Source: Oscillospiraceae bacterium (GTDB lineage Bacteria > Bacillota > Clostridia > Oscillospirales > Acutalibacteraceae). Taken from it: DNA of 64,000 bases. The stretch lies in the NCBI GenBank assembly GCA_015066005.1, contig SVPF01000005.1:1-64000 (forward strand). Direction: 5' to 3'. Under the pieces are notes generated by a model that was given only the letters and a program-made list of their open reading frames with translations, searched no databases and was not told the DNA's origin. A program made the translations under genes and the position numbers. This document shows positions 50,176-64,000 of this stretch, piece by piece (position 1 is the stretch's first letter; each line of letters begins with the position of its first letter).

Positions 50176-50897
50176 TTAATACTTCCCCTGAAAGAAAAGT
50201 AACAAAATACGAAATTGAATTTTATCTTGAAAATGCTAAGTCCACCTACTGTGACGGGCGTGAATACATTATAAAACAAGACTTTATTCAAATAGCGAAG
50301 CCCGGTCAAATCCGTTACAGCACACTGCCCTTTAAAACACTTTATATTAAGTTTTCAGCCACAGATGACTTGGCAAAAATACTTGACTGTGCGCCCGAAT
50401 ATTTTCACAGCAGCCACGCTGACAGAATTAAGGAAAAACTTCGTGAAATTATTGCGCTTAATGAAAGTGATGAGAATCAATTGCTGTTATACAGCCGAAT
50501 TTTATCACTCATTAACCTTATTTTAATTGATGCAAGCATACCAAATACCGCTTCGGAAAATTATCCGACAATTGCCAAGGCAAAACGTTTTATTGAAGAA
50601 AATTATGCAAAACCAATACAGTTATTAGATATTGCTTCATTCGTTAATTTAAGTCCAAGCTATTTTCACACAAGCTTTACCGCGGCTGTGGGCATATCAC
50701 CACACGATTATTTAATTCGTTTTAGGCTTGATGCCGCAAAGCGTATGATGTGGGACACCACAATTGGTATGGATATTATTGCAGAAAATTGTGGCTTTAC
50801 AAATCAGCAATATTTCAGTAAAATATTTAAAAAGCAAACCGGCTTAACACCGAGTCAATACCGCAAGGACTTCCAAAAGAATTACACGGAGGAATAA
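50172..50897 (+). pseudogene. AraC-family regulator lacking its start (5'-truncated)
   Basis: The open frame runs from 50166 to TAA at 50895-50897 and reads GLNTSPERKVTKYEIEFYLE, DFIQIAKPGQIRYSTLPFKT, then the sensor and a C-terminal AraC double HTH (FIEENYAKPIQLLDIASF, GMDIIAENCGFTNQQYFSKI, TGLTPSQYRKDF). The N-terminal strand of the cupin sensor begins right at the junction with no start codon or ribosome binding site; an in-frame TAA stands at 50163-50165. A TTG at 50370 would remove the whole sensor and has no Shine-Dalgarno. The gene is therefore probably silent, or expressed only as a shortened DNA-binding piece. It precedes an oxidoreductase by 2 nt. Confidence 0.7.
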
Positions 50898-50899
50898 CT

Positions 50900-51829
50900 A
50901 TGATAAGCTTTGCCGTTGTGGGTGGTGGCTGGCGCAGCGAATTTTATATTCGTGTTGCTAATGCCCTTCCCCACCTTTTCAGTATTACGGGAATATATTT
51001 AAGAAACGAAAAAACCCAAGCTGAATTTAGCAATAAATATAGCATTAAGATTTTCGACAATCTCGAAAAAATGCTTGAAACCAAGCCCGATTTTGTGGTT
51101 TCTTGCGTTAATAAGGGCCATATTTTAAACGAAATTGAGCTGTTATGCCAAAATGGCGTGGCTGTTTTATCCGAAACACCTGCAGGTATAAGTAATCAAC
51201 AAATAAACAAGTTTAAAGAAAATTACAACAAAGAATATAAAGTGCAGGTCGCCGAGCAATTCCACCTTATGCCCACAAATAAGGCGATTAAAGCAGTTAT
51301 AAACAGCGGTGTTTTAGGTGAAGTTAATTATGTTTCACTTTCCTGCTGTCACGATTATCACGCAATAAGCCTTATGCGTTTTTTCCTTGATATAAATGAA
51401 AACGAAATACCCACCGTTCAAGGCTTCACCCTTTCCGACAGCCTTACAAGATATAACGGCAGATATGGTGATATTGAACCCGAAAGAATAAACAGTGAAC
51501 AAAAAATTGCCCTTATAAAATGGGGCAAAAGGGTTGGAATTTATAATTTTAATAAAGAGCAGTACTTTTCACAAATACGGCAAAAAAGCATTACTGTTAG
51601 GGGTACAAACGGTGAAATACAAAACGGTATTTGCACCTACCTTGAAAACGGCAAAATTAAAAGCTTTAAGCTTAAGGCTTTGGAAGGCTTTGAAAACAGC
51701 GGTCTTAACGAGGACGAGCAGGCTATTGCCGAATGTCTTATTAAAATGGATAATTACCTTAAAACAGGTGAAGCTTTTTACCCATTAAGTAAAGCCATTT
51801 CAGACAGCGAAATTTCACTTTTAATATAA
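50900..51829 (+). CDS. Gfo/Idh/MocA-type NAD(P)-dependent oxidoreductase
   Basis: A 309-residue protein. The Rossmann fingerprint is VVGGGWRSEFYIRV near the start, with PDFVVSCVNKGHILNEIELL and VLSETPAGI following; AEQFHLMPTNKAIKAVINSGVLGEV contains the usual mid-protein helix. It starts after CACGGAGGAATAACT, two bases after the AraC remnant stop, so it once formed an operon with it. It probably oxidises or epimerises a sugar or sugar-acid. Some family members carry a conserved Lys-Pro (EKP) motif here replaced by SETPAG, so activity on an unusual substrate, or loss of activity, is possible. Confidence 0.8.
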   Translation: MISFAVVGGGWRSEFYIRVANALPHLFSITGIYLRNEKTQAEFSNKYSIKIFDNLEKMLETKPDFVVSCVNKGHILNEIELLCQNGVAVLSETPAGISNQQINKFKENYNKEYKVQVAEQFHLMPTNKAIKAVINSGVLGEVNYVSLSCCHDYHAISLMRFFLDINENEIPTVQGFTLSDSLTRYNGRYGDIEPERINSEQKIALIKWGKRVGIYNFNKEQYFSQIRQKSITVRGTNGEIQNGICTYLENGKIKSFKLKALEGFENSGLNEDEQAIAECLIKMDNYLKTGEAFYPLSKAISDSEISLLI

Positions 51830-51836
51830 AAACAGA

Positions 51837-51862
51837 AGGCATACTCCAAACGGAGTATGCCT
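51837..51862. terminator. Bidirectional terminator
   Basis: AGGCATACTCC-AAAC-GGAGTATGCCT, a perfect 11-bp stem with T-rich sequence on the right side (ATCTTTTTT) and an A-rich tract on the left. It separates the convergent oxidoreductase (plus) and ribokinase (minus) genes. Confidence 0.92.
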
Positions 51863-51869
51863 ATCTTTT

Positions 51870-52739
51870 TTAAAGCTCATTTGCGAATGGAATTGACTTT
51901 GAAGCGCCTTCGCGGGAAACCGTTATAGAGGAAGCCCTTGAAGCAATATCTAAAGCAAACTTAATATCCTTTTCATTTGAAACTGCCCAAAGAAAATAAC
52001 CTGTAAAGGTGTCACCCGCGGCGGTTGTGTCAATCGCCTTTACCTTATAAGCCGACTGGCTAATTTGTTTGTCTTTATCCTTATATACACTTCCCCTACT
52101 TCCAAGGGTTAAAACCAATGCACTTTCAGGATATTGATTTATAAAATTTTGCATGGCTTCTTCCGGAGTGTCACCACCGAAAAGCTCGGCTGCTTCAATT
52201 TCGTTACAAAACCAAAGGTCAACAAATTCAAGCGGTAATTTTTTAATATCACTATGGTAAGGGGACGGGTTAAAGGCAATCTTCATTCCAATTCGCCTTG
52301 CAATTTCAAAAGCATCCCTAAGACCGCTTATTTCGTTTTGCAAAAGCAAAATGTCACCCTTTTGAGCATCCTTCAAAAACTGTTCAATATATTCGCAATC
52401 AATTTGAAAATTAGCGCCTGAAAACAGCAAAATGCAGTTTTGACCTGTTTTGTCAACCTGAATTATAGCGTGGCCGCTTGAGGTAGTAACGGTTTTGATT
52501 CTTTCGGTATTAACGCCCGATTCGTTCATAATTTCAACTAAAAACTCCCCGCCGCTGCCAACACAGCCGCCGTGTACAACCTTTGCACCTGCACGGGAAG
52601 CGGCAACCGATTGATTAAGCCCCTTGCCGCCAGGGAAAACTGACATATTTTCACTTGAAAGGGTTTCGCCCGCCCTTACAAAATGGTCAACCGTATAAAC
52701 ATAGTCAATATTTAACGAGCCTAAGCTGTAAATTTTCAT
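51870..52739 (-). CDS. rbsK: Ribokinase (PfkB family)
   Basis: A 289-residue PfkB sugar kinase. The first signature is SVFPGGKGLNQSVAASRAG with the diglycine lid site; the second is DTTAAGDTFTGYF near residue 240, with the catalytic Asp of AGDTF. It phosphorylates ribose (or a similar pentose) at O5 with ATP. It overlaps the nucleoside hydrolase stop by 4 nt, so the pair likely acts together: the hydrolase frees ribose from nucleosides and this kinase traps it. Deoxyribokinase is a possible alternative. Confidence 0.88.
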   Translation of the reverse strand: MKIYSLGSLNIDYVYTVDHFVRAGETLSSENMSVFPGGKGLNQSVAASRAGAKVVHGGCVGSGGEFLVEIMNESGVNTERIKTVTTSSGHAIIQVDKTGQNCILLFSGANFQIDCEYIEQFLKDAQKGDILLLQNEISGLRDAFEIARRIGMKIAFNPSPYHSDIKKLPLEFVDLWFCNEIEAAELFGGDTPEEAMQNFINQYPESALVLTLGSRGSVYKDKDKQISQSAYKVKAIDTTAAGDTFTGYFLWAVSNEKDIKFALDIASRASSITVSREGASKSIPFANEL

Positions 52740-53662
52740 TTCATACCACCCAATGTATTAAACAAGTCCTCAAATAAGGCGTCACGGTCTATCCAATAAA
52801 CGCTTTTTATTAGGTGCCTTGTTTTATCAAAGGCATACTGCTTGTCATATTCAGGAATAGGACTTGAAATAAGGGCATCCTGCATGAACCTATTATTATC
52901 ATTCAAAAGCCATGCAACTGCCGCAACATCCCATATAGGCTTTGACCAAGGCTTACCCTTATAATAAACTTCGGAATACTGTACGGTGTTTTCGTAAAGA
53001 TAATCACATAACGCATTTTTACCCTTAAGCCAATACGATAGCTCGGGCTGGGTTGTTAAAAAACGGTCCACAACGCCCTTACAGGGCAACTGTACAAGCG
53101 GAACACCGCAACCAAAAACCACGCGGGCAGCCGCAATATCCTGCTTCATATTAAACTCAACAGCACCCTTTGGAATGTTGGTAGCGTGACCGCCAAGCCA
53201 AACCACAACGCAATTTTCCTTCATATTGGGGTTTTGTAAAATTGCCGAAGCAACATTGGTGATGGCCCCAATTGCTATAATGTAAAGTGGGTTTTCGGGT
53301 GAATATTTTTCCGAAAGCTGTGCCATAAAATCAGCCGCTTCGGACTGCACAGGTGTGTTTACATCAGGCAAATAGCTTTCCGACCCCTTATATACAAGAG
53401 GTTTAATTTCCTCAAAGCCTGCAAGGGTTAACACCTTTAAAATTTCATTAAAGCTTCTTTCCATACCGTCCTTTGCAGATTCGGATCTGGGATTGAAAAA
53501 CGGCGCTGCGCAAATGCCCTTAACATTAAACTTTTCGCTGTGACCAAGCATATATGCAATTGCAAATTGGTCATCAACCTCGTTATAAGCGTCAGTATCA
53601 AGCACAACATCTATTTTTCCGTTTGGCACATTAAGGTTTTTATAATATAAAGTATTATCCAA
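52736..53662 (-). CDS. Inosine-uridine preferring nucleoside hydrolase family protein
   Basis: A 308-residue nucleoside hydrolase that splits the N-glycosidic bond of a ribonucleoside into base and ribose. The calcium-binding Asp cluster is LDTDAYNEVDDQFAIAYML (Asp22, Asp24, Glu28, Asp30/31), the hallmark of the family. Further motifs are GAITNVASAILQNP and PVGGH/WLGGHATNIPKGAVEFN. I start at the TTG at 53662, 8 nt after AAAGGGG; the longer GTG-initiated frame contains that site. There is no signal peptide. It is cotranscribed with ribokinase. Confidence 0.85.
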   Translation of the reverse strand: MDNTLYYKNLNVPNGKIDVVLDTDAYNEVDDQFAIAYMLGHSEKFNVKGICAAPFFNPRSESAKDGMERSFNEILKVLTLAGFEEIKPLVYKGSESYLPDVNTPVQSEAADFMAQLSEKYSPENPLYIIAIGAITNVASAILQNPNMKENCVVVWLGGHATNIPKGAVEFNMKQDIAAARVVFGCGVPLVQLPCKGVVDRFLTTQPELSYWLKGKNALCDYLYENTVQYSEVYYKGKPWSKPIWDVAAVAWLLNDNNRFMQDALISSPIPEYDKQYAFDKTRHLIKSVYWIDRDALFEDLFNTLGGMK

Positions 53663-53720
53663 ATAAAACACCCCTTTGCCATATTTTAACACAAAAAAAC
53701 AAAAAAGTATATAACCAATA

Positions 53721-55607
53721 CTACTTTTTGTCCATTAAAAGCTTGAAAAACAATCCGCCCTGAACCGAACGGTGACGGAATTTTTTCATTTCAGAGGTGT
53801 CGGTATAATACCAGTCTGTCATTGCAAAACGGGTGCGCATTGTATTGTATGCACTCCACAAGGGCTTTGCAAAGAATTCAAAATCCTCCTTAGAATCGGC
53901 CATACAGGCAACCCACATTGTCCAGTCAGACTTGGTATATTTTTCACGGCTGTCAAGCGGCACACCGTAATAATTCATTTCCTTTTTATAACGCATAAGT
54001 TCGCCCTTATAAAAGCTTTCGGGGAAAATATCGGTTTTCCAAAGCATATCCCAAACAGCGTTATACTTAAGGCTAAAGGTTTCGGGGCGGTCATAGGTTA
54101 AGGCATAGCTTCCGTCACTGTTCTTTGCGCGATCAAGGAAGGACTGTGCATATTTCTTTGCAATTTGCATTTCAGCGTTTGCCTGTTCAGCATTGCCAAG
54201 GGCTGAAAGAATTTTAGAATAACCCGCAATGCCTATTATAGCCTTAATTGAAAGGTTACAGTTATGTGCCAATGTACCCGCAAAGTCGTCAGTACAAAGC
54301 TGATTTTCAGGGTCTTCACCGTATTTTACGAGATATTCCTTCCACATTTCAAGCAGGTCAATATTTTCCTCGGCAAAGCTGTAGTCACCCAATTTATCGC
54401 AAATTGCGGCAACTAAAATAATCATATTACCGCACTCTTCAACAGGCATTTGATGTTCTAAATCATAACCGTTTTTGGGATTACAACGGTATACCTGACC
54501 GTTAACAAGCGGATATTGTCCCACGTCGTGCGGCGCAAAATCAAAGGGCCAAGCATCGCTTTTGGCAAACTTAATTATTGGGTTAAGCATTGCCTTTAAA
54601 AGCTCGGGATTATAATAAAGAAACATTGGTGCACTTGGGTATGTAACATCAACAGTTGCGGCGCAGCCGTTAGAATCACATTCCTTTGAAATGTAGATAA
54701 GCTTACCTTCATTATCAACCGCAAGCTTGTGCGCTGCCATAACCTGTCGGTAGCAAAGCTGCAGCATTTCGGCGTATTCTAAACCTCCAAGGCGATTTGC
54801 TTTTTCATACATATCCTCCGAAAAGGCTTTACAGCGTGCAGTAAGCGATTCGTATTCCCCTGCCGCTTCCAAAAGCGCTTCATTAATGGTTTTGCCGTCC
54901 TTTTTCCAATAGGCCTTCACCCTTTCACCAAAGTATTCAAGTGAATAAATATCGTCATAAGCAAACAAGAAAAGGGCTTCATTATTAAGCTTTGTTTCAG
55001 CATAAACGGTGTATAAATCATCAATAAGGTCGTTGCCAACCGATGCTTCACCCTTGACAGCCATATAAAACCAGCCCCAGTCTATTCGTACATGGTCACC
55101 GCTGCGCCAAAGCACGTTACGGTTACCTCTACCCATACGAACAGCGGTTAATTCGCCAATTTTTTCTTCTTTTGAAATTACACGGGCATCTCCCGCATTG
55201 TTAAGGGTAAGCTCCTCACTGCAATAAAGCTTAACGCTTACATCGTGGTCGAAGCCGTCAAGGCTTTCGTAAAAAAGTTTGAGATATGAAATCGGGCGAG
55301 ATGATAAATATAAATCGGTCACAAGCATGGGCGAAGTCCACACAGCAGTAAGCCTGATTTTTTCATTTTCGTATACAATTGTAGTGCTTAAAGCATCGGC
55401 CTCAACCGAAACCTGAGGGATGATTTTTTTCATATCTCCCCTACCTAAAAAGCGGAAAATCTCCGAATCGATTTTAACATATCCGCGAATGGTATTTCGG
55501 CCACCGGTCCAATGCTCTGCTTCGTGAGTATTTACCTTATCATACGACCAAACCGAAAAATATGGGTCTACGGTTATAAGCGGAATAGCCGGCATACGCA
55601 TTTTCAT
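53721..55607 (-). CDS. DUF4965/glutaminase A-family protein
   Basis: A 628-residue protein, cytoplasmic (no signal peptide), with the ATG preceded by TAGGAGAATGAATT. N-terminal DUF5127-like beta-domain: PLITVDPYFSVWSYDKVN and EHWTGGRNTIRGYV. A central alpha/alpha-barrel DUF4965/DUF1793 domain carries WPFDFAPHDVGQYPLVNGQ and EECGNMIILVAAICDKLG. These domains are described as glutaminase A in fungi, but most bacterial members lack tested activity and may be glycoside hydrolases of (alpha/alpha)6 type. It is divergent from an AraC regulator that probably controls it. It is not in a transport operon here. Confidence 0.78.
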   Translation of the reverse strand: MKMRMPAIPLITVDPYFSVWSYDKVNTHEAEHWTGGRNTIRGYVKIDSEIFRFLGRGDMKKIIPQVSVEADALSTTIVYENEKIRLTAVWTSPMLVTDLYLSSRPISYLKLFYESLDGFDHDVSVKLYCSEELTLNNAGDARVISKEEKIGELTAVRMGRGNRNVLWRSGDHVRIDWGWFYMAVKGEASVGNDLIDDLYTVYAETKLNNEALFLFAYDDIYSLEYFGERVKAYWKKDGKTINEALLEAAGEYESLTARCKAFSEDMYEKANRLGGLEYAEMLQLCYRQVMAAHKLAVDNEGKLIYISKECDSNGCAATVDVTYPSAPMFLYYNPELLKAMLNPIIKFAKSDAWPFDFAPHDVGQYPLVNGQVYRCNPKNGYDLEHQMPVEECGNMIILVAAICDKLGDYSFAEENIDLLEMWKEYLVKYGEDPENQLCTDDFAGTLAHNCNLSIKAIIGIAGYSKILSALGNAEQANAEMQIAKKYAQSFLDRAKNSDGSYALTYDRPETFSLKYNAVWDMLWKTDIFPESFYKGELMRYKKEMNYYGVPLDSREKYTKSDWTMWVACMADSKEDFEFFAKPLWSAYNTMRTRFAMTDWYYTDTSEMKKFRHRSVQGGLFFKLLMDKK

Positions 55608-55625
55608 AATTCATTCTCCTAACAG

Positions 55626-55654
55626 TTGATTTATTAGTATAATTGTATTATAAT
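55626..55654 (+). promoter_or_regulatory. Promoter of the AraC regulator at 55712
   Basis: TTGATT (55626-55631), 17-nt spacer, TATAAT (55649-55654). The gene starts 58 nt after the -10 box, following GAGGAATACAATTT. The promoter overlaps a tandem TATAATTGT repeat that may bind the regulator, so it may be autoregulated. The region also serves the divergent DUF4965 gene. Confidence 0.7.
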
Positions 55655-55713
55655 TGTTAAAACACCCATTATTATAGGGAAATACAATTATAAAGTTGAG
55701 GAATACAATTTAT
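55638..55713. repeat. Repeated TATAATTGTAT elements between divergent genes (candidate operators)
   Basis: TATAATTGTAT at 55638-55648 is followed directly by TATAATTGTTA at 55649-55659 (11-bp spacing). Exact inverse ATACAATTATA lies at 55682-55692 and a close copy ATACAATTTAT at 55703-55713, touching the ATG. Four half-sites within 76 bp, one pair in tandem at one helical turn, resemble AraC-type operators. Confidence 0.5.
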
Positions 55714-56512
55714 GTTGGAAATAATTAAAACATTTCCTCGTGTAGATGACCCGTTAAGAATTTCTATGGCGGGGATATCCTACTGTGATGGCGCTTACCG
55801 TATTAAAAGAAATGTGGCTTCTATCACCGTTATTGAATACATTATAAAGGGCACCGGTTATATTAAGCATAACGGAACGCTTTATACCGTTGGGGCTGAT
55901 ACTGTATATATTTTACCTAAGGGCACCGTCCATGAATATTATTCCTCAGCAAGCGACCCTTGGGAAAAAATTTTTATAAATATCGAAGGTGATTTTGCCC
56001 TTACAATTTTAGAGCAATACGGTATTGATAAAAAAATAATATTCAGTGGTAACGGTATTGAAAACATTTTCACAAGGGTTGCTGAAATTGCAAAAAGCGA
56101 TAGTCACGGTCACCGTGAGGACTGCACCCTTCAGGCACTGTTTTTAGAGGCGGTTGCAAAGCTTAGCCGCAGTGATGGTCGTGCGCTTCACAGCCGTGAG
56201 GCCGTTATTCTTAAGGATTATCTTGATAAAAATCTTGATAGGATTATCGGTAATACTGAGCTTTCTTCGGTAATTTACCGTTCACCTGACTATTGCGTAA
56301 AGCTTTTCCGCCGTGAATACGGTGTTCCACCTTATGATTATCATTTAAACGAAAAAATGAGAACTGCAAAGCGTTTGCTTCGTGACACAAAAATCCCGAT
56401 ATGCGAGGTTGCCGAAAGACTTGGTTACCACGACCCCTGTTATTTTGCGGGGCTTTTTAAAAAGAAGTGTGGCGCTTCTCCGCGGGAATACCGTAAACAA
56501 AAAAATATATAA
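55712..56512 (+). CDS. AraC-family transcriptional regulator
   Basis: A 266-residue protein: N-terminal cupin sensor (about 1-140; RRNVASITVIEYIIKGTGYI and a KGTVHEYYSS metal-like site) and C-terminal AraC double HTH (about 165-265; NTELSSVIYRSPDYCVKLFR, PICEVAERLGYHDPCYFAGL, CGASPREYRKQK). It is divergent from the DUF4965 gene and probably regulates that gene in response to a sugar ligand. The promoter and four candidate operator half-sites lie in the shared gap. A terminator follows the stop by 18 nt. Confidence 0.93.
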   Translation: MLEIIKTFPRVDDPLRISMAGISYCDGAYRIKRNVASITVIEYIIKGTGYIKHNGTLYTVGADTVYILPKGTVHEYYSSASDPWEKIFINIEGDFALTILEQYGIDKKIIFSGNGIENIFTRVAEIAKSDSHGHREDCTLQALFLEAVAKLSRSDGRALHSREAVILKDYLDKNLDRIIGNTELSSVIYRSPDYCVKLFRREYGVPPYDYHLNEKMRTAKRLLRDTKIPICEVAERLGYHDPCYFAGLFKKKCGASPREYRKQKNI

Positions 56513-56530
56513 AAGCACAGAAACAGAAAA

Positions 56531-56572
56531 AGAGAACAACACGCTTCATTTCCGTAATGTTCTCTCTTTTTT
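56531..56572 (+). terminator. Rho-independent terminator after the AraC regulator
   Basis: AGAGAACA (56531-56538), 19-nt loop, TGTTCTCT (56558-56565), then CTTTTTT. It is located 18 nt after the stop at 56512. Confidence 0.8.
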
Positions 56573-56987
56573 ATTATATATGATGTAATAGACAAGCTGT
56601 TTGAAAAGCCGCTTATGATATAAAAAGTCGGCCTCCTGCCGACGAAAGCAGGAGGCCATAGGTAATAATAACGAGCTTATAAACGGTTGACGAAGTCGGT
56701 TATAAGCCCTTGCCGCAGGTACAAAAACGCTTAATAAAAAAACCTTACGGCAATCAAAAGGCAAAAACTGCGAAGCGGTTTTGAAGTAATAGTGAATAGG
56801 TAATAGGTTCGGTGCGCCTTCGGCACGAACAATTTTGTCGGCTTTGCAGACACCTCACTTACTCACCCTTACTTCTTACCTCTTACTTTAAAATGCGAAG
56901 CATTTTTGCCCTTTGATTGCCGCCTAACTCCCCGAGGGGAGTTAGGACGGACTTAAAAATGATTATTCCAAACGGATGCGAATGTCG
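56573..56987. repeat. Repeat-rich non-coding stretch
   Basis: No convincing gene lies here. It contains a GGCCTCCTGC hairpin (56630-56657), then an A+T-rich tract with GTAATAGTGAATAGGTAATAGG (about 56785-56806, split by eye) matched imperfectly by CCTTACTTCTTACCTCTTAC near 56869-56888, a GTGCGCCTTCGGCAC dyad near 56812, and a perfect 11-bp palindrome CCTAACTCCCC-GA-GGGGAGTTAGG (56923-56946) just downstream of the surface gene stop. The blocks look like interspersed palindromic or MITE-like remnants. The last hairpin may also end the surface-gene transcript. Confidence 0.5.
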
Positions 56988-58415
56988 TTACCAGGTAGTC
57001 TGGACAGTCACATTGGTGTTACCACCAGTAACGCCGTCAACTTTGATCGGGTCAGTCTTGGCGTTGTTAGTAACTGTGTTACCGGTAACGGTTACGGTTC
57101 CATTGCCAATGGATGTGGCACGAACAAAGCGATCGCCTGCGCCATCCGAAGTGTTGCCGGTGATGGTAATGCCAGTATAATCGTAACCGGAACCAGCCAA
57201 CAAGATATCGTGCTTAACACTATTCTTGAAAACATTATTGGTAATGGTAATACCCTCCATCGGGCGAGCTTCGATCACCTGATGAGCGCCTACAACTTCA
57301 CAGCCGGTGATGGTCAGATTCTTAACGCCGGAAGTCATTACAAACTGGCTGGTGGTCTTATCATTCATGGTATTGTAACCGGAGTGAGGCTGATAAACGA
57401 ATCTGTCATTGCCCTCAGTATCAGTCATTTTACAATTAACAAGACTCAAGCCGTCAATAGCAATAGCGAAGCCGTCGGGAATCATCACAGCAGTGCTTGC
57501 GCCGGAGAAGGTTACATTTTTGATGGTAAGGTTCTTAACATCAATGTAGTTCCAGATAGTGTTTGCATCTTCTCTACCATTATCGAAGGTGATCTGATCG
57601 ACAGTTGCACCTGTAGCACCGAGGATGGTAATGTTCTCGTATCTGCTGTAATGCTCATTGCCGGTTTCGTCGCCGCCAATAGCCGAAATATCAACGACCA
57701 GACTGGAAGCATTTCTGCGGAACACGAGAGTACCGTAGTTCACGCCCGACACCAGTTTGATCTCCGTGTTGGGGCCGGCGTTGTCCAGCGCGGCCTGCGC
57801 TTCAGCGGCAGAACCCGCGATGACGGTATTCTTATCGTACTGATTATTGTAGCTGTCATACTCGAAGGTGTACTGGGTAGCGTAAACGGTGATGCCGATA
57901 CCTTCGAGGGTCAGACCCTGATACTCGTTGCCTGCTTCTTCCTTCATATGACCCTTGATCACGATAGATTCGGATACAGCATCGGTAGTGTCTAAGTGAC
58001 CGCTATAGTTGGTGATAGCAGCACCATTAGCAGTAAACTCAATAGCTTCGAGAAGCTTTGCGTTGCCGGTAACGCCGTTGATAACGATGGTATACTGCAG
58101 AGCGAGGTTGCCGTTGTTGCGAACGCGGATAGCAGGCAGCTCATAAGTACAGCCGGGTTCCCAAAGAATGTCAGTGGTACGGTTATCTGCTGTCTTAAAC
58201 TTTAGGGATTGGCCCTCGGCATTTTCCCAAGTATTACCACCGTCGGTAGAATACTCAAGTGCAACCTCAAGCTTACCTGACTGAATGGTGTTTACTGCGG
58301 TTGAAGCGCTGTCAGTAAACCAAGCGAATGTGGTACCAATTAGCATGGATAAGCAGAGTACTAAGGAAAACGCACTCAACACCAATGCCTTCTTGGTGGT
58401 TTTTTTATTCGTCAT
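56988..58415 (-). CDS. TasA/camelysin-type secreted protein with right-handed beta-helix
   Basis: A 475-residue exported protein, started at the ATG at 58415 after AAGGAGGTAATAATA. It has a SipW-type signal (LSMLIGTTFAWFTDSAST) and the following NTIQSGKLEVAL and WEPGCTYELPAIRVRNNG patterns of the TasA/camelysin (M73) family to about residue 170. From about residue 185 it turns into a right-handed beta-helix with repeated turns such as YENITILGATG, NLTIKNVTFSG, NLTITGCEVVG and GITITGNTSDG. It lacks an anchor or sortase motif. Its base composition is richer in G+C at third positions than its neighbours. It lies just downstream of an invertible promoter and is probably phase-variable; no SipW peptidase is in the window. 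Confidence 0.82.
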   Translation of the reverse strand: MTNKKTTKKALVLSAFSLVLCLSMLIGTTFAWFTDSASTAVNTIQSGKLEVALEYSTDGGNTWENAEGQSLKFKTADNRTTDILWEPGCTYELPAIRVRNNGNLALQYTIVINGVTGNAKLLEAIEFTANGAAITNYSGHLDTTDAVSESIVIKGHMKEEAGNEYQGLTLEGIGITVYATQYTFEYDSYNNQYDKNTVIAGSAAEAQAALDNAGPNTEIKLVSGVNYGTLVFRRNASSLVVDISAIGGDETGNEHYSRYENITILGATGATVDQITFDNGREDANTIWNYIDVKNLTIKNVTFSGASTAVMIPDGFAIAIDGLSLVNCKMTDTEGNDRFVYQPHSGYNTMNDKTTSQFVMTSGVKNLTITGCEVVGAHQVIEARPMEGITITNNVFKNSVKHDILLAGSGYDYTGITITGNTSDGAGDRFVRATSIGNGTVTVTGNTVTNNAKTDPIKVDGVTGGNTNVTVQTTW

Positions 58416-58483
58416 TATTATTACCTCCTTATTATAGATTTTCTTGACGAATATGTATAAGCGCATAAAGCGTTTGTACAGAA

Positions 58484-58502
58484 ACATAATCCGTATTATG
58501 TC
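58484..58502. repeat. Left inverted repeat (recombination site)
   Basis: ACATAATCCGTATTATGTC. Its reverse complement matches the right repeat over the 18-bp core, with different flanks. Each copy is itself a near-palindrome with arms ACATAAT and ATTATGT around a 4-bp centre (CCGT), typical of a tyrosine recombinase core site. The asymmetric centre orients the two sites head to head. Confidence 0.85.
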
Positions 58503-58517
58503 ATATACGAGAGCATT

Positions 58518-58549
58518 AAAAAAGCCTTCGCTGTATCATCGCGAACGCT
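58518..58549 (-). terminator. Terminator facing the surface gene, inside the invertible segment
   Basis: Read on the minus strand: AGCGTTCGC, loop GATGATACA, GCGAAGGCT, then TTTTTT. The stem is 8 paired bases plus one G-G mismatch. It would stop leftward transcripts (for example from the recombinase) before the surface gene in the present orientation. Confidence 0.7.
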
Positions 58550-58576
58550 AACAATCTGAAACGGGTATAAAAAGCC

Positions 58577-58608
58577 AAGCCTTTTCATTTTTAAGTGTGA
58601 GAAGGCTT
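58577..58608 (-). terminator. Second terminator-like hairpin inside the invertible segment
   Basis: AAGCCTTTTC (58577-58586), a 12-nt loop, GAGAAGGCTT (58599-58608): ten paired positions including one wobble. On the minus strand the stem is followed by GGCTTTTTATA. It would block leftward read-through from the recombinase gene. Confidence 0.65.
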
Positions 58609-58669
58609 ATTTGTGTTATATTGAAAATCAATAATCATCTTACATATCATAGTTTGGGGTACGAGTCCC

Positions 58670-58698
58670 TTGACTTTTTGCAAATGTAGTGCTATAAT
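58670..58698 (+). promoter_or_regulatory. Near-consensus sigma-A promoter inside the invertible segment
   Basis: TTGACT (58670-58675), 17-nt spacer, TATAAT (58693-58698). In the current orientation it drives rightward transcription from about 58705 through the right repeat into the terminator at 58767-58791. In the inverted state it would face the TasA-like gene. It is the best promoter in the interval 58416-58789; I found no comparable leftward promoter. Confidence 0.88.
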
Positions 58699-58744
58699 GC
58701 GTATGTAATATAGTTTTTTGTCCGTATTTTTACATTCAATAGCA

Positions 58745-58763
58745 ACATAATACGGATTATGTC
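58745..58763. repeat. Right inverted repeat (recombination site)
   Basis: ACATAATACGGATTATGTC. Its 18-bp core is the exact reverse complement of the left repeat. In direct orientation the two copies differ at two central bases, so inversion rather than excision is the favoured outcome. Confidence 0.85.
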
Positions 58764-58766
58764 TTT

Positions 58767-58791
58767 GCCGCCGCTTTTGGTGGCTTTTTTT
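58767..58791 (+). terminator. Terminator just outside the right repeat
   Basis: GCCGCC (58767-58772), loop GCTTTT, GGTGGC (58779-58784) with one G-T wobble, then seven T. It lies 4 nt past the right repeat and just before the end of the recombinase gene. It would cap the OFF-state transcript and protect the recombinase from antisense transcription. Confidence 0.8.
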
Positions 58792-59632
58792 ATAGTATTA
58801 ACCGCATATTTTCCATACGGCGACGGTGTTCATCACCGGTAGTGACAATATATATACGCGTAGTATTGATACTGCTGTGACCAAGAACATCAGCAAGCGT
58901 GGCTATGTCCTTTTCGATGGCGTAAAAGGTACGGGCGAACAGGTGGCGCAGATTATGTGGAAACACTTTGTCAGGATTTACTCCTGCTTCGGTACAAAGG
59001 TTTTTCATTTCCCGCCAAATGTTTGTGCGGCTGATTGGTTTACCGTTACGGGTTATGAATATTGCCCCTGATGTGATTTTTTGCTCTGCTATATAGCGGA
59101 GCAATTTTTGTTTTAATTCCTTTACGATAAATACCGTTCTTGTTTTACCTTTCAGCGTTACCACCGCTTCGCCGCATTTGACCGCTTCCACCGTAATGAA
59201 CTCCAGCTCGCTGACACGGATGCCCGTACCACAAATGGTCTGTATCATAAGATTTAATCGCTCGTTGCCCTTTTTCTTAGCGGTATTGACAAGGCATAAG
59301 TACTCCGCTTTGGTTAGTTCCTTTTCTTTCGGGCAGTAGATTTGCCGTTGAAGCTTTATGGATTTTACCTTTAAGTCTAACCATCCGAGGAAGGCGAAAA
59401 AACTGTTGAGTGATGCTAACATGGAATTGATACTCCGCACGGCATACTTTCTCTCTACAAGTTTGTTTTTATAAGCAATAACGGTTTCTTTTGTGACCTT
59501 ACAATCATTAAGCTGCTCCATAAATACCGTTACGTCACGGATATATTTTTCTACGGTGTTTTCACTCTTTTCCTCTGATTTCAGCCAAGCGTGAAAGTCT
59601 TTAATGCTGCTTTGTGTTATAATCCTTTCCAT
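58790..59632 (-). CDS. Tyrosine recombinase, candidate invertase of the adjacent promoter segment
   Basis: A 280-residue XerC/D-size tyrosine recombinase. The N-terminal core-binding domain (about 10-95) has SENTVEKYIRDVTVFMEQL. Catalytic residues are Arg139 (GTGIRVSEL), His226 and Arg229 (HNLRHLF), His252 (VLGHSSI) and nucleophile Tyr261 (TTRIYI), with a Lys in the KGKTRTVF hairpin. The set is complete, so it should be active. The ATG follows TGGAGGTTATGCA. It is next to inverted repeats that look like its sites, unlike a phage integrase whose att sites would be direct repeats. Chromosome-dimer resolution by XerC/D is a less likely role. Confidence 0.88.
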   Translation of the reverse strand: MERIITQSSIKDFHAWLKSEEKSENTVEKYIRDVTVFMEQLNDCKVTKETVIAYKNKLVERKYAVRSINSMLASLNSFFAFLGWLDLKVKSIKLQRQIYCPKEKELTKAEYLCLVNTAKKKGNERLNLMIQTICGTGIRVSELEFITVEAVKCGEAVVTLKGKTRTVFIVKELKQKLLRYIAEQKITSGAIFITRNGKPISRTNIWREMKNLCTEAGVNPDKVFPHNLRHLFARTFYAIEKDIATLADVLGHSSINTTRIYIVTTGDEHRRRMENMRLIL

Positions 59633-59999
59633 TGCATAACCTCCAGATAATTCTATCTTTTAATTTTACCCGAAAAGTATGATTTCCCAAAAGCCGTAAG
59701 CTATACAAACCGTTCCAATCTTACGGGAGTAGATATATCAATTTGGAAAGAGAAGTATTGCGAGTCATATTTCAAGCTTTCAAAATATTCTCTGTTATGC
59801 AGGACTTGGGAAGAATTTATTATTGTCAAAGGAGCAAGATAAATGCCTGAAAATAGCAGTAACCGAAAGGCGTTACGCCTTCCGGTTACATTTCGCACTA
59901 ATTACTTCGTTAAAAAAACTGACATAATCTGCACGGCTTTTCGCTGTCCTTGGGAGCTCCACCAATTTTGCTCATCCGTGCTTTTGTTTGAATATAAAA
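59633..59999. other. Gap between recombinase and mutS2
   Basis: About 367 bp with no firm gene. A plus-strand open frame at about 59650-59842 (tail ...TWEEFIIVKGAR) has protein-like composition but no start, and could be a small gene remnant. The minus strand upstream of the recombinase has a weak TTGGGA-16-TAAAAT promoter candidate. A large hairpin lies at 59859-59889. Confidence 0.35.
59859..59889. repeat. Large near-perfect hairpin downstream of mutS2
   Basis: GTAACCG, one mismatch, AAGGCG, loop TTA, CGCCTT, mismatch, CGGTTAC: 13 pairs across 31 bp. It lies about 110 nt after the mutS2 stop. The T-run is weak, so it could be a palindromic repeat rather than the mutS2 terminator. Confidence 0.5.
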
Positions 60000-62387
60000 T
60001 TACTGTTCAAGCTCAGCAATGGTTACACCGTTTTCACCCTCACCAAAGGTACCAAGGCGGAAGGATTTTATATTCTTATGGTGGCGGAGATGCGCCTGAA
60101 CATTTTTTCTAAGCACACCTGTGCCCTTGCCGTGAATAATACGAATAGTATCAATCCCCGACAAAACTGCATTGTCGATAAAGCTGTCAAGCTCTAAAAT
60201 TGCTTCATCACTTGCCTGACCGCGCAAATCAATTTCGGTAACGGCTTGACGCTCGACACGGGATTTAATACCAGTTACGTTGCGTGTTTTTGGGCGTTCG
60301 GTCGTGGGTGAAAAGCTTGATTTAAAGCGAAGATTATCAAAGCCGACCCACATTTTAATGGCGCCCGCCATAACATAAGCCTGCTTTTTATCAGTTTTAA
60401 CATCAATAACAGTTGCATCACGGCCAATATCTGCAATAACCACAATATCACCCTTATTGACGCTTGTAACCGCTTCACCCGCCACCTTTTTAACGGTTAT
60501 AGGGTCGGCTTCATCCTCAAGTTCTTTAAGGGTGGATTTATAAGCCCCGCGGGCTTTTTCAGCCATTTTTGCCGCATTTTCGGCATTGATGGCTTTTTTC
60601 ATTTCTTCAAGCTCGTTCAGTAAAAGTGACGACTTATACCTTGCATTTTCAATAATTTGATTTGCTTTTTCACGGGTTTCGTTCATCGCCTTTTCAAGCT
60701 TTATTTCAAGCTCGTGCTCCCGCATATCGCTTTTGCGCTTGGCTTCATCCAACTGAATGCGAAGCTTTTGGGCCTTTTTTTGCTCTTCCTCGGCTTCACG
60801 GCGGGCATTTTCAAGGGAAGCCACAACCCTTTCAAAGCGTAGGTCCTCATCCTTAACCTGTTCCTTTGCGGCTTCAATAATGCTTTCATCAAGCCCCAAT
60901 TTGCCCGATATTGCAAAGGCGTTTGACCGCCCCGGCATACCTATTATAAGGCGGTATGTTGGCTTCAAGGTTTGCACATCAAATTCGCAGGAGGCATTTT
61001 CCACCTTTTCGGTATCAATTGCGTAAGACTTAAGCTCGGGATAGTGGGTAGTCGCTACCACCCTACTGCCATAAAGAGAAAGCCGCATTAAAATTGCTTT
61101 TGCAAGGGCTGCGCCTTCAATTGGGTCGGTACCTGCGCAAAGCTCGTCAAATAAAACAAGCGAATCATCATCGGCATTATCTAAAATTGAAATTATATTA
61201 ACCATATGGGATGAAAAGGTTGAAAGCGATTGCTCGATGCTTTGCTCGTCACCGATATCGGCAAAAATCTTGCTGAAAACCGCAACCTCACTGCCGTCGT
61301 CAACAGGTATCATAAGTCCACACATTGTCATTAGGCTTAAAAGACCGATTGTTTTAATGGTTACGGTTTTACCGCCGGTATTGGGACCTGTAATAACAAG
61401 GGTGTTATATTCCCTGCCAAGTCCTACAGTTATGGGCACAACCGTTTTATTGCTAATAAGCGGATGGCGTGCATTTTTAAGGTAAGTATAGCCCTTTTGG
61501 TTTATTTTAGGCAGGGCCGCACGCATTTTATAGGCAAGCTTTGCCTTTGCAAACACTAAATCAAGCCGAATCAGTGCATTAAAGGAAGCCGTAATACCAC
61601 CTACAAAGCCACCTGCCTCGGCCGATAATTCGGCTAAAATGCGGTCAATTTCTTCACTTTCTTTAATTTTTAAAACACGAATTTCGTTGTTAGTTTCTAC
61701 AACCGACATTGGCTCAATAAAAATGGTAGAGCCCGTGGCAGATGTGTCATGCACAATACCGCTTACCTGACCCTTACATTCAGCCTTTACGGGCACAACA
61801 AAACGGCCGTCACGCTGGGTTATAATAGCATCCTGCAAGTATTTAACGGTGGGACCTTTAACAATTTTATCAAGCAAGTCACGCACCTTTGAAGATTTTG
61901 CGCTTATTTTACGGCGAATATCATATAAGGTAGGTGACGCGTTATCGTTAAGCTCTTCTTCGTTTTTAATTGCAAAGCTTATTTTTTCTTCCAAATATTT
62001 GTTAGGCACTAATGTGTCAAAAAGCTCCTGCAAAGGTGTTTCGGTTATACCGCTGCAGTTTTCCCGCCAAGCCTTTACCGTGCGGATGACACGCAGTGTA
62101 TCGGCAGTGTCAAGCAAATCGCGCATTGAAAGCACTGCGCCTGCTTCGGCGCGGTTTAACACAGATATAACATTTCTCGCCCCTGCAAAATTGGGCGCCT
62201 GATACTGTGCCATAAAGCAATATGCCGAATCGGTTTGGGAAAGCAAAAAGCCAACCCTTTTAAAATCGGTTTCGGGTAAAATTTTTAAAGAGAGTTCCTT
62301 GGTTTCCGCAATAGATGCTTCGTTTGAAAGGCTTTGTAAAATTTTATCAAGCTCAAGTGTTTTGGAATATCTTTCGATATTATACAT
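60000..62387 (-). CDS. mutS2: Endonuclease MutS2
   Basis: A 795-residue MutS2. The ATPase Walker A ITGPNTGGKTVT lies near residue 334 and Walker B SLVLFDELCAGTDP near 410. A long coiled-coil clamp (about 510-640; EAEEEQKKAQKLRIQLDEAK) follows, and a C-terminal Smr endonuclease domain (about 715-795) has EIDLRGQASDEAI and IIHGKGTGVLRK. MutS2 suppresses recombination and, in Bacillus, rescues stalled ribosomes through splitting of collided disomes. It begins 4 nt after the recO stop. It is a core gene with normal length. Confidence 0.97.
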   Translation of the reverse strand: MYNIERYSKTLELDKILQSLSNEASIAETKELSLKILPETDFKRVGFLLSQTDSAYCFMAQYQAPNFAGARNVISVLNRAEAGAVLSMRDLLDTADTLRVIRTVKAWRENCSGITETPLQELFDTLVPNKYLEEKISFAIKNEEELNDNASPTLYDIRRKISAKSSKVRDLLDKIVKGPTVKYLQDAIITQRDGRFVVPVKAECKGQVSGIVHDTSATGSTIFIEPMSVVETNNEIRVLKIKESEEIDRILAELSAEAGGFVGGITASFNALIRLDLVFAKAKLAYKMRAALPKINQKGYTYLKNARHPLISNKTVVPITVGLGREYNTLVITGPNTGGKTVTIKTIGLLSLMTMCGLMIPVDDGSEVAVFSKIFADIGDEQSIEQSLSTFSSHMVNIISILDNADDDSLVLFDELCAGTDPIEGAALAKAILMRLSLYGSRVVATTHYPELKSYAIDTEKVENASCEFDVQTLKPTYRLIIGMPGRSNAFAISGKLGLDESIIEAAKEQVKDEDLRFERVVASLENARREAEEEQKKAQKLRIQLDEAKRKSDMREHELEIKLEKAMNETREKANQIIENARYKSSLLLNELEEMKKAINAENAAKMAEKARGAYKSTLKELEDEADPITVKKVAGEAVTSVNKGDIVVIADIGRDATVIDVKTDKKQAYVMAGAIKMWVGFDNLRFKSSFSPTTERPKTRNVTGIKSRVERQAVTEIDLRGQASDEAILELDSFIDNAVLSGIDTIRIIHGKGTGVLRKNVQAHLRHHKNIKSFRLGTFGEGENGVTIAELEQ

Positions 62388-62390
62388 TTT

Positions 62391-63155
62391 TTACTCCTTA
62401 ATACTGTTGTAGAAGTCTAGTGTTTTAAATCTATAATCGGTTTGAGCAACCAAATAAGCAGAGGTGAGCTCACTTAAAAGCTTTGCGCGGTCGTTTGGTA
62501 TATCAAAGCTGTAAAGCTTTTCAAAGTCGGAATAAACAATATGCCGCATAGCCGACAGCATTGTGCGGTCAATAGGAATAGCGTTTTGTTCCCTTTCACA
62601 TTCACCGCAGGTAATAACACCGTCTTCGGTATTAAAGTACATTATATCATCTTCAAATTTACCGCAGTTATCGCAAGCAATTAGGTTTGGTGCATAACCC
62701 GAAATTGTAGCGGTACGAAGCTCGGTTATGGCTTTAATAAGCGGCGGAAAGCGTTTTGCCACGGTCAAAAAATGAAGCGAATTTAAAATTAGGCGCAAAA
62801 ATTCGGTATTATTTGTACCGTTAACCGCAAAATTAAAGCTAAGCTCACAAAAATACTGCGCAAGGGTTAAAACCTCAATATCATCCCCCGCACCGAAAAA
62901 CATTTTTATTGGGGTGGCTTCATAAATGCGAAGACTTCCGTTTTTGTCCTTAATGGTAAAGCTACCGTATGTAAGAAGGCTTGTTGCGGCGCCCTTTTTG
63001 GATTTAATACCCTTAGCGCCGCTTGCAAAAGCCTTTATAATGCCGTGCTCCTTACTGAAAAGTGTCACTAGGCGGTCGCTTTCGCCCACGTTCATTTCCT
63101 TTATTACCAGCGCTTCGGTTGTAAATCGGGTTATATTCTCCGCCAATGACTTCAC
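62391..63155 (-). CDS. recO: DNA repair protein RecO
   Basis: A 254-residue RecO. The N-terminal OB fold has TEALVIKEMNVGESDRLVTL and EHGIIKAFASGAKG. A zinc ribbon of four cysteines lies near 150-177 (ACDNCGKFEDD and ITCGECERE). RecO loads RecA together with RecR on SSB-coated DNA. The start may be GTG at 63155 or TTG at 63146; the AAGGGA site favours the TTG. It partly overlaps the yqzL-like gene. Gene order matches era-yqzL-recO of Firmicutes. Confidence 0.94.
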   Translation of the reverse strand: MKSLAENITRFTTEALVIKEMNVGESDRLVTLFSKEHGIIKAFASGAKGIKSKKGAATSLLTYGSFTIKDKNGSLRIYEATPIKMFFGAGDDIEVLTLAQYFCELSFNFAVNGTNNTEFLRLILNSLHFLTVAKRFPPLIKAITELRTATISGYAPNLIACDNCGKFEDDIMYFNTEDGVITCGECEREQNAIPIDRTMLSAMRHIVYSDFEKLYSFDIPNDRAKLLSELTSAYLVAQTDYRFKTLDFYNSIKE

Positions 63156-63240
63156 TTCCCTTACACGAATTTACATAATTTAAATAGTCACTTACCTTGC
63201 CGCTTTTGGCAAATTTAAGCCAGCTTTTATTTTCTTGCAT
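63052..63240 (-). CDS. yqzL: YqzL-like small protein
   Basis: A 62-residue frame from the ATG at 63240. The N-terminal part, SWLKFAKSGKVSDYLNYV, resembles YqzL (a W-x-x-F/FxxTG-xxxxYLxY pattern), a short protein of unknown function encoded between era and recO in Bacillus. The extra C-terminal 30 residues are basic and overlap recO by about 104 nt, so the true end could be earlier if a base is missing. Known YqzL proteins are about 45 residues. Confidence 0.55.
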   Translation of the reverse strand: MQENKSWLKFAKSGKVSDYLNYVNSCKGSEVIGGEYNPIYNRSAGNKGNERGRKRPPSDTFQ

Positions 63241-63292
63241 TTTATCACCCAAAATTAGTTTTAGGTAATATTTAAAAATTATAAAAGGTAAA

Positions 63293-64000
63293 TTAATCTA
63301 ATCCAAAGGTATGAATAAGACCTTGGCGGTTACGCCAGTCTTCCTTAACCTTTACCCACAGCTTAACCGATGCGCGAATGCCGAAAAATTCCTCAATATC
63401 ACGGCGGGACTGCATACCGATTTTTTTAAGCATTGCGCCACCCTTGCCGATAATAATACCCTTGTGCGAATCCTTTTCGCAAATAATGGTGGCTTCAATT
63501 TCGACAATTGGCTCACCCTCAGCAGTGTCACGTTCAACAAAGCGCTCCAAATCAACCGCAATACCGTGCGGTACCTCTTTATCAAGTGAACGTAAAAGCT
63601 TTTCACGAATCATTTCAGCAACTATTACCTTTTCGGGTTGGTCGGTAACATCGTCCGACGGGAAGAAATGGGGCGAAGGCTTTGAAAACTTTTTAATTTC
63701 AGTCATCAAAATATCAACACCGTCACCTGTACGGGCCGAAAGCGGTACAACTGCTTCAAAGTCAAACGCTTTTGTGTATGCCATAATAAGTGAAAACAGC
63801 TCGTCCTTCTTTTCTAAAAGGTCAATTTTATTTATAACTAAAACCGCCTTCATTTTGCGGCGCTTAAGGTCTTCAATAAGCCTTGCCTCAGCAGGTGGTA
63901 AATTGTCACCGTCAAACTTAAATTTGGGGTTAGCCTCAACCACTAAAACAGCCGCATCAACATCGGTCATACCGTCACTTACGGCTTTATTCATATTCTT
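63293..64000 (-). CDS. era: GTPase Era, C-terminal part (gene cut by window end)
   Basis: The last 235 or so residues of Era; the P-loop lies outside the window. The fragment has VINKIDLL (G4), VPLSARTGDGVD (G5) and a C-terminal KH domain with KGIIIGKGGAMLKKIG, then EDWRNRQGLIHTFGLD. Era binds the 3' end of 16S rRNA and is needed for 30S assembly. The open frame continues past 64000. Nothing unusual is visible. Confidence 0.95.
   Translation of the reverse strand, partial: KNMNKAVSDGMTDVDAAVLVVEANPKFKFDGDNLPPAEARLIEDLKRRKMKAVLVINKIDLLEKKDELFSLIMAYTKAFDFEAVVPLSARTGDGVDILMTEIKKFSKPSPHFFPSDDVTDQPEKVIVAEMIREKLLRSLDKEVPHGIAVDLERFVERDTAEGEPIVEIEATIICEKDSHKGIIIGKGGAMLKKIGMQSRRDIEEFFGIRASVKLWVKVKEDWRNRQGLIHTFGLD

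What the first reader, a model, noticed from the sequence alone, without database searches (positions are those of the whole stretch)
58484..58763. Phase-variable invertible promoter controlling a TasA-like surface protein
Seen directly: exact 18-bp inverted repeats (58484-58502, 58745-58763), a near-consensus TTGACT-17-TATAAT promoter between them, a complete tyrosine recombinase 27 nt to the right, and an exported beta-helix protein with its ATG 69 nt to the left. Established knowledge: gut bacteria control surface structures with promoters flipped by tyrosine recombinases acting on short inverted repeats. Inference: the segment flips to turn the 56988-58415 gene on and off; the sequenced orientation is OFF.
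Basis: partly seen in the sequence, partly recalled or inferred. Interest (0 to 1): 0.92.

Follow-up and report, generated by a model that had tools for sequence, protein, structure and literature searches.

The report
Flip-switch promoter for bacterial surface protein
In what is likely a gut Clostridia genome, a 243-base piece of DNA with a predicted promoter sits between two perfect mirror-image 18-base sites, beside a recombinase that is predicted to flip it and so likely turn a TasA-type surface-protein gene on and off; the same cassette, found in both orientations, stands ahead of many unrelated genes in related bacteria.

Summary
The only exact 18-bp inverted pair 60-900 bp apart in the window (58484-58501 / 58745-58762) brackets 243 bp with a near-consensus promoter pointing away from the surface gene (OFF). 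An intact tyrosine recombinase lies 27 nt to the right. Inversion was not seen in this strain (no reads, one assembly), but comparative evidence is strong. 60 of 63 related recombinase loci with enough downstream sequence carry such a pair. The site is a dif-like palindrome, ACATAA-N6-TTATGT; its N6 varies between loci but is inverted-identical within each (51 of 51 loci with two exact-arm sites; 19 of 19 pairs in a scan not using the recombinase). Promoters are called OFF in 40, ON in 13, unclear in 9 of 62 loci, at mirrored positions. Homologous segments are inverted exactly when promoter calls differ (38 of 38 pairs, 14 inverted; not independent). One locus pair keeps recombinase and target but has the segment reversed. 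Close cassettes head unrelated genes; SipW-like peptidases recur downstream (13 of 49 versus 0 of 55 upstream). This is an invertible promoter of a known kind, in a Xer/dif-like, locus-private, transplantable form that probably overlaps a published Clostridia inverton group.

The parts
58484..58501 (.). Target-side recombination site (arms ACATAA / TTATGT, core N6 = TCCGTA)
58745..58762 (.). Recombinase-side recombination site, exact reverse complement of the first
58502..58744 (.). Invertible segment, 243 bp; sequenced orientation OFF (predicted)
   Evidence: inverted relative to L041 and L037 and relative to the target in congener G038
58670..58698 (+). Promoter TTGACT-17-TATAAT with TG -10; points to the recombinase 3' end. 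Flipped, its -10 would end 133 nt before the surface-gene ATG
58576..58609 (-). Hairpin with T-rich tail on the strand opposite the promoter; in OFF it lies between recombinase and surface gene and would stop read-through (predicted)
   Evidence: such hairpins in 18 of 53 segments with a promoter call, 2 of 159 shuffles (same strand, upstream of the promoter: 9 of 53); fold: -10 kcal/mol, z -2.4 on this strand; -16.2, z -4.4 on the + strand, which has the weaker T-run
58767..58792 (+). Terminator-like hairpin plus T-run just beyond the recombinase-side site; would end the OFF transcript before it runs antisense into the recombinase gene
   Evidence: -11.2 kcal/mol, z -3.3; like structures at this place in 36 of 56 loci, 20 of 280 controls
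58790..59632 (-). Xer-like tyrosine recombinase, 280 aa, predicted invertase
56988..58415 (-). Target gene: predicted exported protein with SipW-dependent (TasA-type) signal and predicted beta-helix, 475 aa
58424..58430 (-). Ribosome-binding site AAGGAGG of the target gene (by sequence)
   Evidence: read from the sequence
58431..58459 (-). Promoter-like TATACA-17-TATAAT outside the segment; its start point would fall in the ribosome-binding site, so judged unlikely to serve the gene
   Evidence: position read

Best explanation
A predicted promoter lies on a 243-bp segment between two exact 18-bp inverted dif-like sites, and the adjacent Xer-like recombinase likely inverts that segment, so that a TasA-type surface-protein gene would be transcribed in one orientation and silent in the sequenced one. 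Shown: the sites, the promoter-like sequence, the intact recombinase gene, the export-signal match, the conservation of the whole cassette, and opposite segment orientations among relatives. Inferred: the recombinase binds the palindromic arms ACATAA / TTATGT and exchanges strands across the 6-bp core, as Xer enzymes do at dif. In OFF the promoter would make a short transcript stopped by the terminator before the recombinase gene, while the internal hairpin would block read-through from the recombinase into the surface gene. Flipping would bring the -10 to 133 nt before the ATG and move the hairpin behind the promoter. The population would then be a mixture of cells with and without the surface protein.
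For: Exact repeats beyond chance. Same anatomy at 60 of 63 named loci with at least 500 nt downstream; no exact-arm site in 61 upstream control windows. Of the 63, 51 have two or more exact-arm sites (5 have one, 7 none), and in 51 of 51 the first and last cores are inverted-identical, never direct, while cores differ between loci (43 distinct in 62; between-locus match 29 of 1891). A scan of 300 genomes not using the recombinase found 19 site pairs in 18 genomes (the window among them), all 19 inverted-identical, control pattern 0; 17 of the 18 loci held have the recombinase alongside, the other is cut by its contig end; 5 of the 18 are loci already in the named set. Promoter OFF 40, ON 13, unclear 9 of 62; median distance of the -10 to its repeat 47 and 46 nt. 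Segment homology (E < 1e-8, 60 nt or more) inverted exactly when calls differ: 38 of 38 pairs, 14 inverted; 3 more pairs had an unclear call. G079/G264: recombinase end 83% identical, same target start, segment 77% identical inverted versus 53% direct. Congener G038: homologous segment reversed relative to its target. Terminator beyond the site in 36 of 56 loci versus 20 of 280 controls.
Against: No reads and only one assembly of this species, so no flip was seen here; two exact-pattern scans of viral contigs for this species found nothing. The five nearest relatives by MutS2 lack the cassette at this place, so there is no orthologous flipped copy of this very locus. OFF calls outnumber ON; 9 of 62 are unclear, and 5.5% of shuffled segments reach the median promoter score. 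Promoter and terminators are consensus matches, not mapped. A 10-of-12 promoter-like sequence lies outside the segment at 58459-58431. Three of 63 loci (L046, L052, L061) have no pair and L090's pair is poor. Below the threshold used, six segment pairs show weak hits in both orientations. Pairs of related loci are not independent.
Confidence: 0.9

Rival explanations
1. The cassette is real, but in this strain it is locked: the segment no longer flips, or so rarely that the gene is in effect off.
For: Only the OFF orientation is seen in this assembly; most called relatives are also OFF (40 of 53 calls). Some relatives have a broken recombinase (L018 and L121 carry a stop).
Against: Here the recombinase is full length with all invariant residues, both 18-bp sites are exact, and the core is asymmetric as needed for inversion.
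Confidence: 0.07
2. The surface gene is transcribed from the promoter-like site outside the segment (58459-58431), and the inversion, if any, serves something else.
For: TATACA-17-TATAAT, 10 of 12, on the right strand.
Against: Its start point would lie in the AAGGAGG ribosome-binding site about 9 nt before the ATG (read). Across relatives the first gene past the segment is co-directional in 57 of 59 loci (a count that favours + strand frames), and the -10 keeps a similar distance to the repeat it points at.
Confidence: 0.05
3. The recombinase is chiefly an integrase that moves the cassette, dif-module fashion, and the two sites are ends of a mobile unit, with inversion a by-product.
For: Patchy presence (7 of 70 congeners plus one fragment); close recombinases head unrelated genes (4 of 48 pairs with at least 75% identity share a homologous target); copies on IMG/VR contigs and plasmids.
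Against: The recombinase lies outside the site pair, so the pair does not bracket it. The outermost sites are inverted, not direct, in all 51 loci tested, which gives inversion rather than excision. A promoter is kept at a similar place.
Confidence: 0.04

Closest known systems
Clostridia inverton group 139 with tyrosine recombinase (invertase) group 35 in the hCom2 community, PMC11892184 (passages and section 8 seen)
   Same: 33 invertons, 32 from Clostridia, nearly all beside a tyrosine-type recombinase; promoter-sized spans by the coordinates printed (257 bp in Clostridium sp. D5 with 26-bp repeats, 255 bp in Intestinimonas with 14-bp repeats); orientation shifts measured from reads.
   Different: The repeat sequence is not in the passages that I saw and supplements could not be opened, so identity with the dif-like site here is likely but untested. 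The passages seen do not mention a dif-like site, locus-private cores, paired terminators or SipW/TasA targets ('SipW' occurs 0 times in the main text).
RecV-controlled switches of Clostridioides difficile (flagellar switch, cmrRST, pdcB; starts of abstracts)
   Same: Clostridia, site-specific inversion at inverted repeats, switching of surface or motility traits.
   Different: Recalled: there one recombinase, RecV, serves several distant switches; here each switch has its own neighbour recombinase and its own core. RecV itself was not compared by sequence.
XerCD/dif and single-enzyme Xer systems (XerA, XerH)
   Same: Sequence family (nearest solved chains XerC-like 4a8e 1.5e-35, XerA 5hxy, XerD 1a0p); arms flanking a 6-bp core as in E. 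coli dif GGTGCGCATAA-TGTATA-TTATGTTAAAT (letters in PMC3025954; the division into arms is recalled).
   Different: Paired inverted sites around a promoter instead of one chromosomal site; near-palindromic arms; far below NCBIfam equivalog cut-offs (155.1 versus 220 for XerA); a second Xer-like gene at 30% identity is elsewhere in the genome.
PsrA-type DNA invertases (annotated Streptococcus dysgalactiae plasmid hit at 34% identity)
   Same: Tyrosine DNA invertase matching 93% of the query.
   Different: 34% identity only; PsrA is recalled to shuffle restriction specificity genes, not promoters.
TasA/SipW matrix-fibre operons (B. subtilis, recalled)
   Same: SipW-dependent signal on the target; SipW-like peptidase downstream of 13 of 49 cassettes; congener G055 has cassette, TasA-like and SipW-like proteins (by eye) and a homologue of this target (49% over residues 1-309) in one run.
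   Different: In the window no SipW gene is adjacent; the genome's SipW-like genes over the cut-off are on contigs C51 and C2. The target adds a predicted beta-helix.

Membership tests
Invertible promoter (inverton) switched by a tyrosine recombinase | Inverted repeats flanking a promoter-sized segment | tested here: met
   Exact 18-bp pair, 243 bp apart, 0 of 100 controls
Invertible promoter (inverton) switched by a tyrosine recombinase | Promoter in the segment that can face a gene after inversion | tested here: met
   By consensus only: 11 of 12 match; similar place in relatives. Not mapped.
Invertible promoter (inverton) switched by a tyrosine recombinase | Both orientations exist | tested here: inconclusive
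   Seen across relatives; for this species only OFF is held
Invertible promoter (inverton) switched by a tyrosine recombinase | The recombinase performs the inversion | not testable with these tools
   Needs an assay; co-occurrence in 17 of 18 loci found without it
Xer recombinase / dif site | Tyrosine recombinase related to Xer enzymes with intact conserved residues | tested here: met
Xer recombinase / dif site | Curated XerA/XerC/XerD equivalog cut-off | tested here: not met
   155.1 versus 220 (XerA), 131.9 versus 329.6 (XerD), 123.5 versus 335.15 (XerC). It works like Xer in this reading but is not filed as one.
Xer recombinase / dif site | Site of two arms around a 6-bp core | tested here: met
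   Arms nearly invariant, core variable, over 62 x 2 sites; resembles E. coli dif
TasA / camelysin family | SipW-dependent signal | tested here: met
   TIGR04088 29.2 bits, cut-off 19
TasA / camelysin family | TasA-type fibre domain | tested here: inconclusive
   PF12389 just over cut-off, residues 8-54 only; Foldseek lists the Pyrobaculum bundling pilin 7ueg at E 2.4e-3, rank 14, recalled to be TasA-like; most top hits are beta-helix enzymes
Inverton group 139 / invertase group 35 (PMC11892184) | Same repeat motif and recombinase cluster | not testable with these tools
   Motif not in the passages seen; supplements not available

The most novel reading that the evidence does not exclude
This is one copy of a transplantable, self-contained phase-variation cassette spread through gut Clostridia and their mobile elements: recombinase, terminator, dif-like site, promoter-plus-terminator segment, second site. 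The 6-bp core works as a locus-private barcode that keeps co-resident switches from recombining with each other, so any gene can be put under its own stochastic switch, with SipW/TasA surface-fibre operons as the favourite cargo.
Probability: 0.4. Interest if true: 0.75.

Novelty: new variant of a known kind. Interest (0 to 1): 0.57.

Why it matters
It ties a conserved, searchable sequence signature (recombinase plus ACATAA-N6-TTATGT pair) to phase variation in gut Clostridia, where published counts of invertons are low (median 3 per genome in Firmicutes_A, PMC11892184). It predicts stochastic expression of SipW/TasA-type surface structures and of many other genes. It also gives an orthogonality rule (core sequence) that can be tested directly in a laboratory strain and could serve as a set of independent DNA switches.

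Tried and rejected
Same-species flip: no metagenome scans were allowed, and two exact-pattern scans of viral contigs found nothing. Orthologous site in near relatives: five were taken of the 62 with MutS2 (G044, G045, G017, G037, G066). BLAST of window 50001-64000 matches them from about the end of mutS2 rightward only, apart from one 305-nt match to window 52506-52810 in G044; genes beside mutS2 were listed for G044, G045 and G017 only. None of the five has a recombinase hit above about 30% identity.

Core barcoding in one genome: in the multi-cassette genomes looked at, the cores seen differ in G158, G160 (one site each), G168, G063, SIG427, CANPXK, CAJFOI and G201 (TGCCGA and TGCTGA); in G069 two of three recombinase loci share a core, with nearly identical recombinases. 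With a background match of 1.5% this has no power. Absence of palindromic cores (0 of 62, about 2.5 expected) is suggestive only.

A first, too strict text search for SipW/TasA (8 of 49 downstream, 0 of 55 upstream) was replaced by phmmer (SipW-like 13 of 49, + strand only, versus 0 of 55, both strands). Three of its six query proteins come from loci that are counted (L064, L066, L105). The TasA-like expression gave 11 downstream and 6 upstream hits; by eye 2 of the 11 and all 6 are spurious, so only the SipW count is used. The 62 of 62 core identity was selected with up to 3 mismatches allowed, so 51 of 51 is quoted instead. L090's pair is weak but stays in the 62 and the 60 of 63. Dropped before counts: 6 of 62 loci in the terminator test (site under 12 or over 100 nt from the recombinase), 9 unclear loci in the hairpin test, L070, L088 and L098 from the 59 first genes scanned; 55 loci with a target in the recombinase/target comparison. 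A Pusillibacter plasmid recombinase (L229) has no site within one mismatch in its arms. Fold searches were run on the whole model; mainly the beta-helix half is covered. Rfam: no match in 48000-64000. Literature absence: SipW + invertible gives 0 papers; dif site + invertible promoter gives 2 papers, listing only.

Full report
What is there. The window (G000, contig C46; 1.97 Mb in 53 contigs, 88% complete) holds, from left to right: a surface-protein gene on the - strand (56988-58415), an 18-bp site (58484-58501), 243 bp, the same site inverted (58745-58762), a terminator-like hairpin (58767-58784 plus T-run) and a 280-aa tyrosine recombinase on the - strand (58790-59632), then mutS2 (60000-62387). 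Recombinase and surface gene run in the same direction. The best promoter match in the segment (TTGACT-17-TATAAT, TG -10) points toward the recombinase 3' end, away from the surface gene. The inverted pair is the only exact 18-bp one 60-900 bp apart in the window, with 0 of 100 controls, and the site with exact arms occurs nowhere else in the assembly. Its nearest named recombinase records are Clostridia / Ruminococcaceae MAGs, many from animal guts by their titles.

A family of like cassettes. Searching 150 genomes of the same family gave 35 with a recombinase hit at 1e-20; in 5 of these the hits are only 30-33% identical (probably housekeeping Xer), leaving 30. In the genus, 7 of 70 genomes, the window's included, have one at 50% identity or more, plus a 78-residue fragment in G062. 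A named-genome scan kept the best 80 loci of at least 577. Of these 80, 63 have at least 500 nt after the recombinase, and 60 of the 63 show a site pair there; L046, L052 and L061 do not. The site is ACATAA-N6-TTATGT, with weaker outer positions giving RCA-ACATAA-TNNGNA-TTATGT-TGTA: a near-palindrome with a 6-bp core, like the inner part of E. coli dif (letters in PMC3025954, passages seen). The arms are nearly invariant and the core is variable. Median segment length is 244 bp (171-431, 62 loci with the window) and median distance from the recombinase 30 nt.

The recombination signature. If strands are exchanged in the core, both sites of a locus must share it, inverted. Taking exact arms with the core unrestricted, 51 of the 63 loci have two or more sites (5 have one, 7 none), and in 51 of 51 the first and last cores are inverted-identical; none is direct. 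Between loci cores match in 29 of 1891 pairs. A scan not using the recombinase (300 family genomes, two exact-arm sites 222-252 bp apart) found 19 pairs in 18 genomes, the window's among them, all 19 inverted-identical, with 0 for the reversed control pattern. Of the 18 loci held, 17 have the recombinase beside the pair and the other ends 67 nt beyond its site. Five of the 18 repeat loci of the named set and one is the window, so 12 are new. The sites therefore go with this recombinase family.

Both orientations occur. By promoter score (a difference of at least 1.5 needed) 40 of 62 loci are OFF, 13 ON, 9 unclear; the -10 ends a median 47 nt (OFF) or 46 nt (ON) from the repeat it points at, with a few outliers up to 214 and 142. 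The mean best score is 11.81 against 9.65 in shuffles, 5.5% of which reach the observed median. Segment homology, found by BLAST without regard to promoters (E < 1e-8, 60 nt or more), is inverted exactly when the calls differ: 38 of 38 pairs, 14 of them inverted. Three further pairs had an unclear call, the pairs involve 26 loci and are not independent, and among weaker hits six pairs match in both orientations. The window's own segment aligns directly with L038 (65%, z 13.1) and inverted with L041 (63%, z 11.0), although the recombinase genes align directly in both cases. L238 and L249 (G079, G264) are the cleanest pair: the last 430 nt up to the site 83% identical, the same target start (judged on the residues printed), segment 77% identical when inverted and 53% when not; L249 is the same locus as L037. 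In congener G038 the homologous segment faces its target, an SPFH-like gene by eye, the other way round from the window; that contig holds only one, imperfect site and lacks the recombinase side.

Insulation. A terminator-like hairpin lies between the recombinase-side site and the recombinase 3' end in 36 of 56 loci, reading against the recombinase, versus 20 of 280 controls. A second hairpin with a T-rich tail lies in the segment on the strand opposite the promoter in 18 of 53 loci versus 2 of 159 shuffles; on the promoter's own strand upstream of it 9 of 53 have one. In the window it folds at -10 kcal/mol on the strand opposite the promoter and -16.2 on the other. I infer that, in part of the family, inversion exchanges a promoter for a terminator in front of the target.

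Targets. The first gene past the segment is co-directional in 57 of 59 loci (the method favours + strand frames). I scanned 57 first genes, the window's included. NCBIfam: SipW-type signal peptidase in 6, SipW-dependent signal in 3. Pfam: BspA-type leucine-rich repeats 5, SPFH/Band 7 5, dockerin 4, TetR 4, Peptidase_M73 4. SipW-like genes occur within 4.5 kb downstream in 13 of 49 loci and upstream in 0 of 55; three of the six query proteins come from counted loci. Among 55 loci with a target in the set, recombinases at least 75% identical make 48 pairs, and only 4 of these have homologous targets, so the cassette is shuffled between genes. Of 17 IMG/VR loci, six (L212, L215, L218, L220, L221, L222) show a pair within one mismatch per site and L217 a poorer one; several others are cut at the contig end. 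A Monoglobus plasmid has a pair, a Pusillibacter plasmid none. In congener G055 the cassette heads a run with TasA-like and SipW-like proteins (by eye) and a homologue of the window's target (49% over residues 1-309).

Compared with what is known. The principle (promoter flipped by a neighbouring tyrosine recombinase) is well known. PMC11892184 (passages and section 8 seen) reports a Clostridia inverton group of 33 tightly linked to one tyrosine recombinase group, with read-measured orientation shifts; the spans printed (255 and 257 bp) fit this family, but the motif could not be compared. What I did not find in those passages, or in two directed searches, is the dif-like site with a locus-private core, the promoter/terminator exchange, the transplantation between unrelated genes, and the link to SipW/TasA. 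Hence: a new variant of a known kind. Inversion, recombinase activity and transcription remain untested.

Noticed in passing
L059, L069, L081, L108, L112, L116, L161, L165, L174, L233: Loci with three or four sites of the same core (L108 has two on each side), so segments of different length could invert and direct copies could delete.
   Followed up: partly
L163 5625-6398 and 3940-5448: A recombinase of the family with one exact site only, ahead of a gene that reads by eye like IMP dehydrogenase; a nearly identical recombinase with a full pair and the same core lies on another contig of that genome.
   Followed up: partly
L212 4831-8831: On an IMG/VR contig the switch stands ahead of genes that read by eye like DNA methylases of a restriction system.
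   Followed up: no
L157 4055-10585: Congener G055: cassette, then membrane protein, TasA-like, SipW-like (by eye), beta-helix homologue of the window's target, and a further TasA-like protein.
   Followed up: partly
window 56740-56960: Intergenic repeat-like element with inverted arms (20 nt, 95%); a 44-nt part recurs at 93% identity on C51 and weaker parts on C29 and C9.
   Followed up: partly
window 52500-59990: The stretch beside mutS2 is variable: BLAST finds none of it beside mutS2 in five relatives except a 305-nt piece of the 52506-52810 region in G044.
   Followed up: partly
G069: One congener gives 24 matches to the window's target, mostly its N-terminal part, and holds three recombinases of the family: a possibly expanded switchable surface repertoire.
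   Followed up: no
L079 5319 onward: The cassette stands ahead of genes that read by eye like an SbcCD-type nuclease pair, not a surface gene.
   Followed up: no
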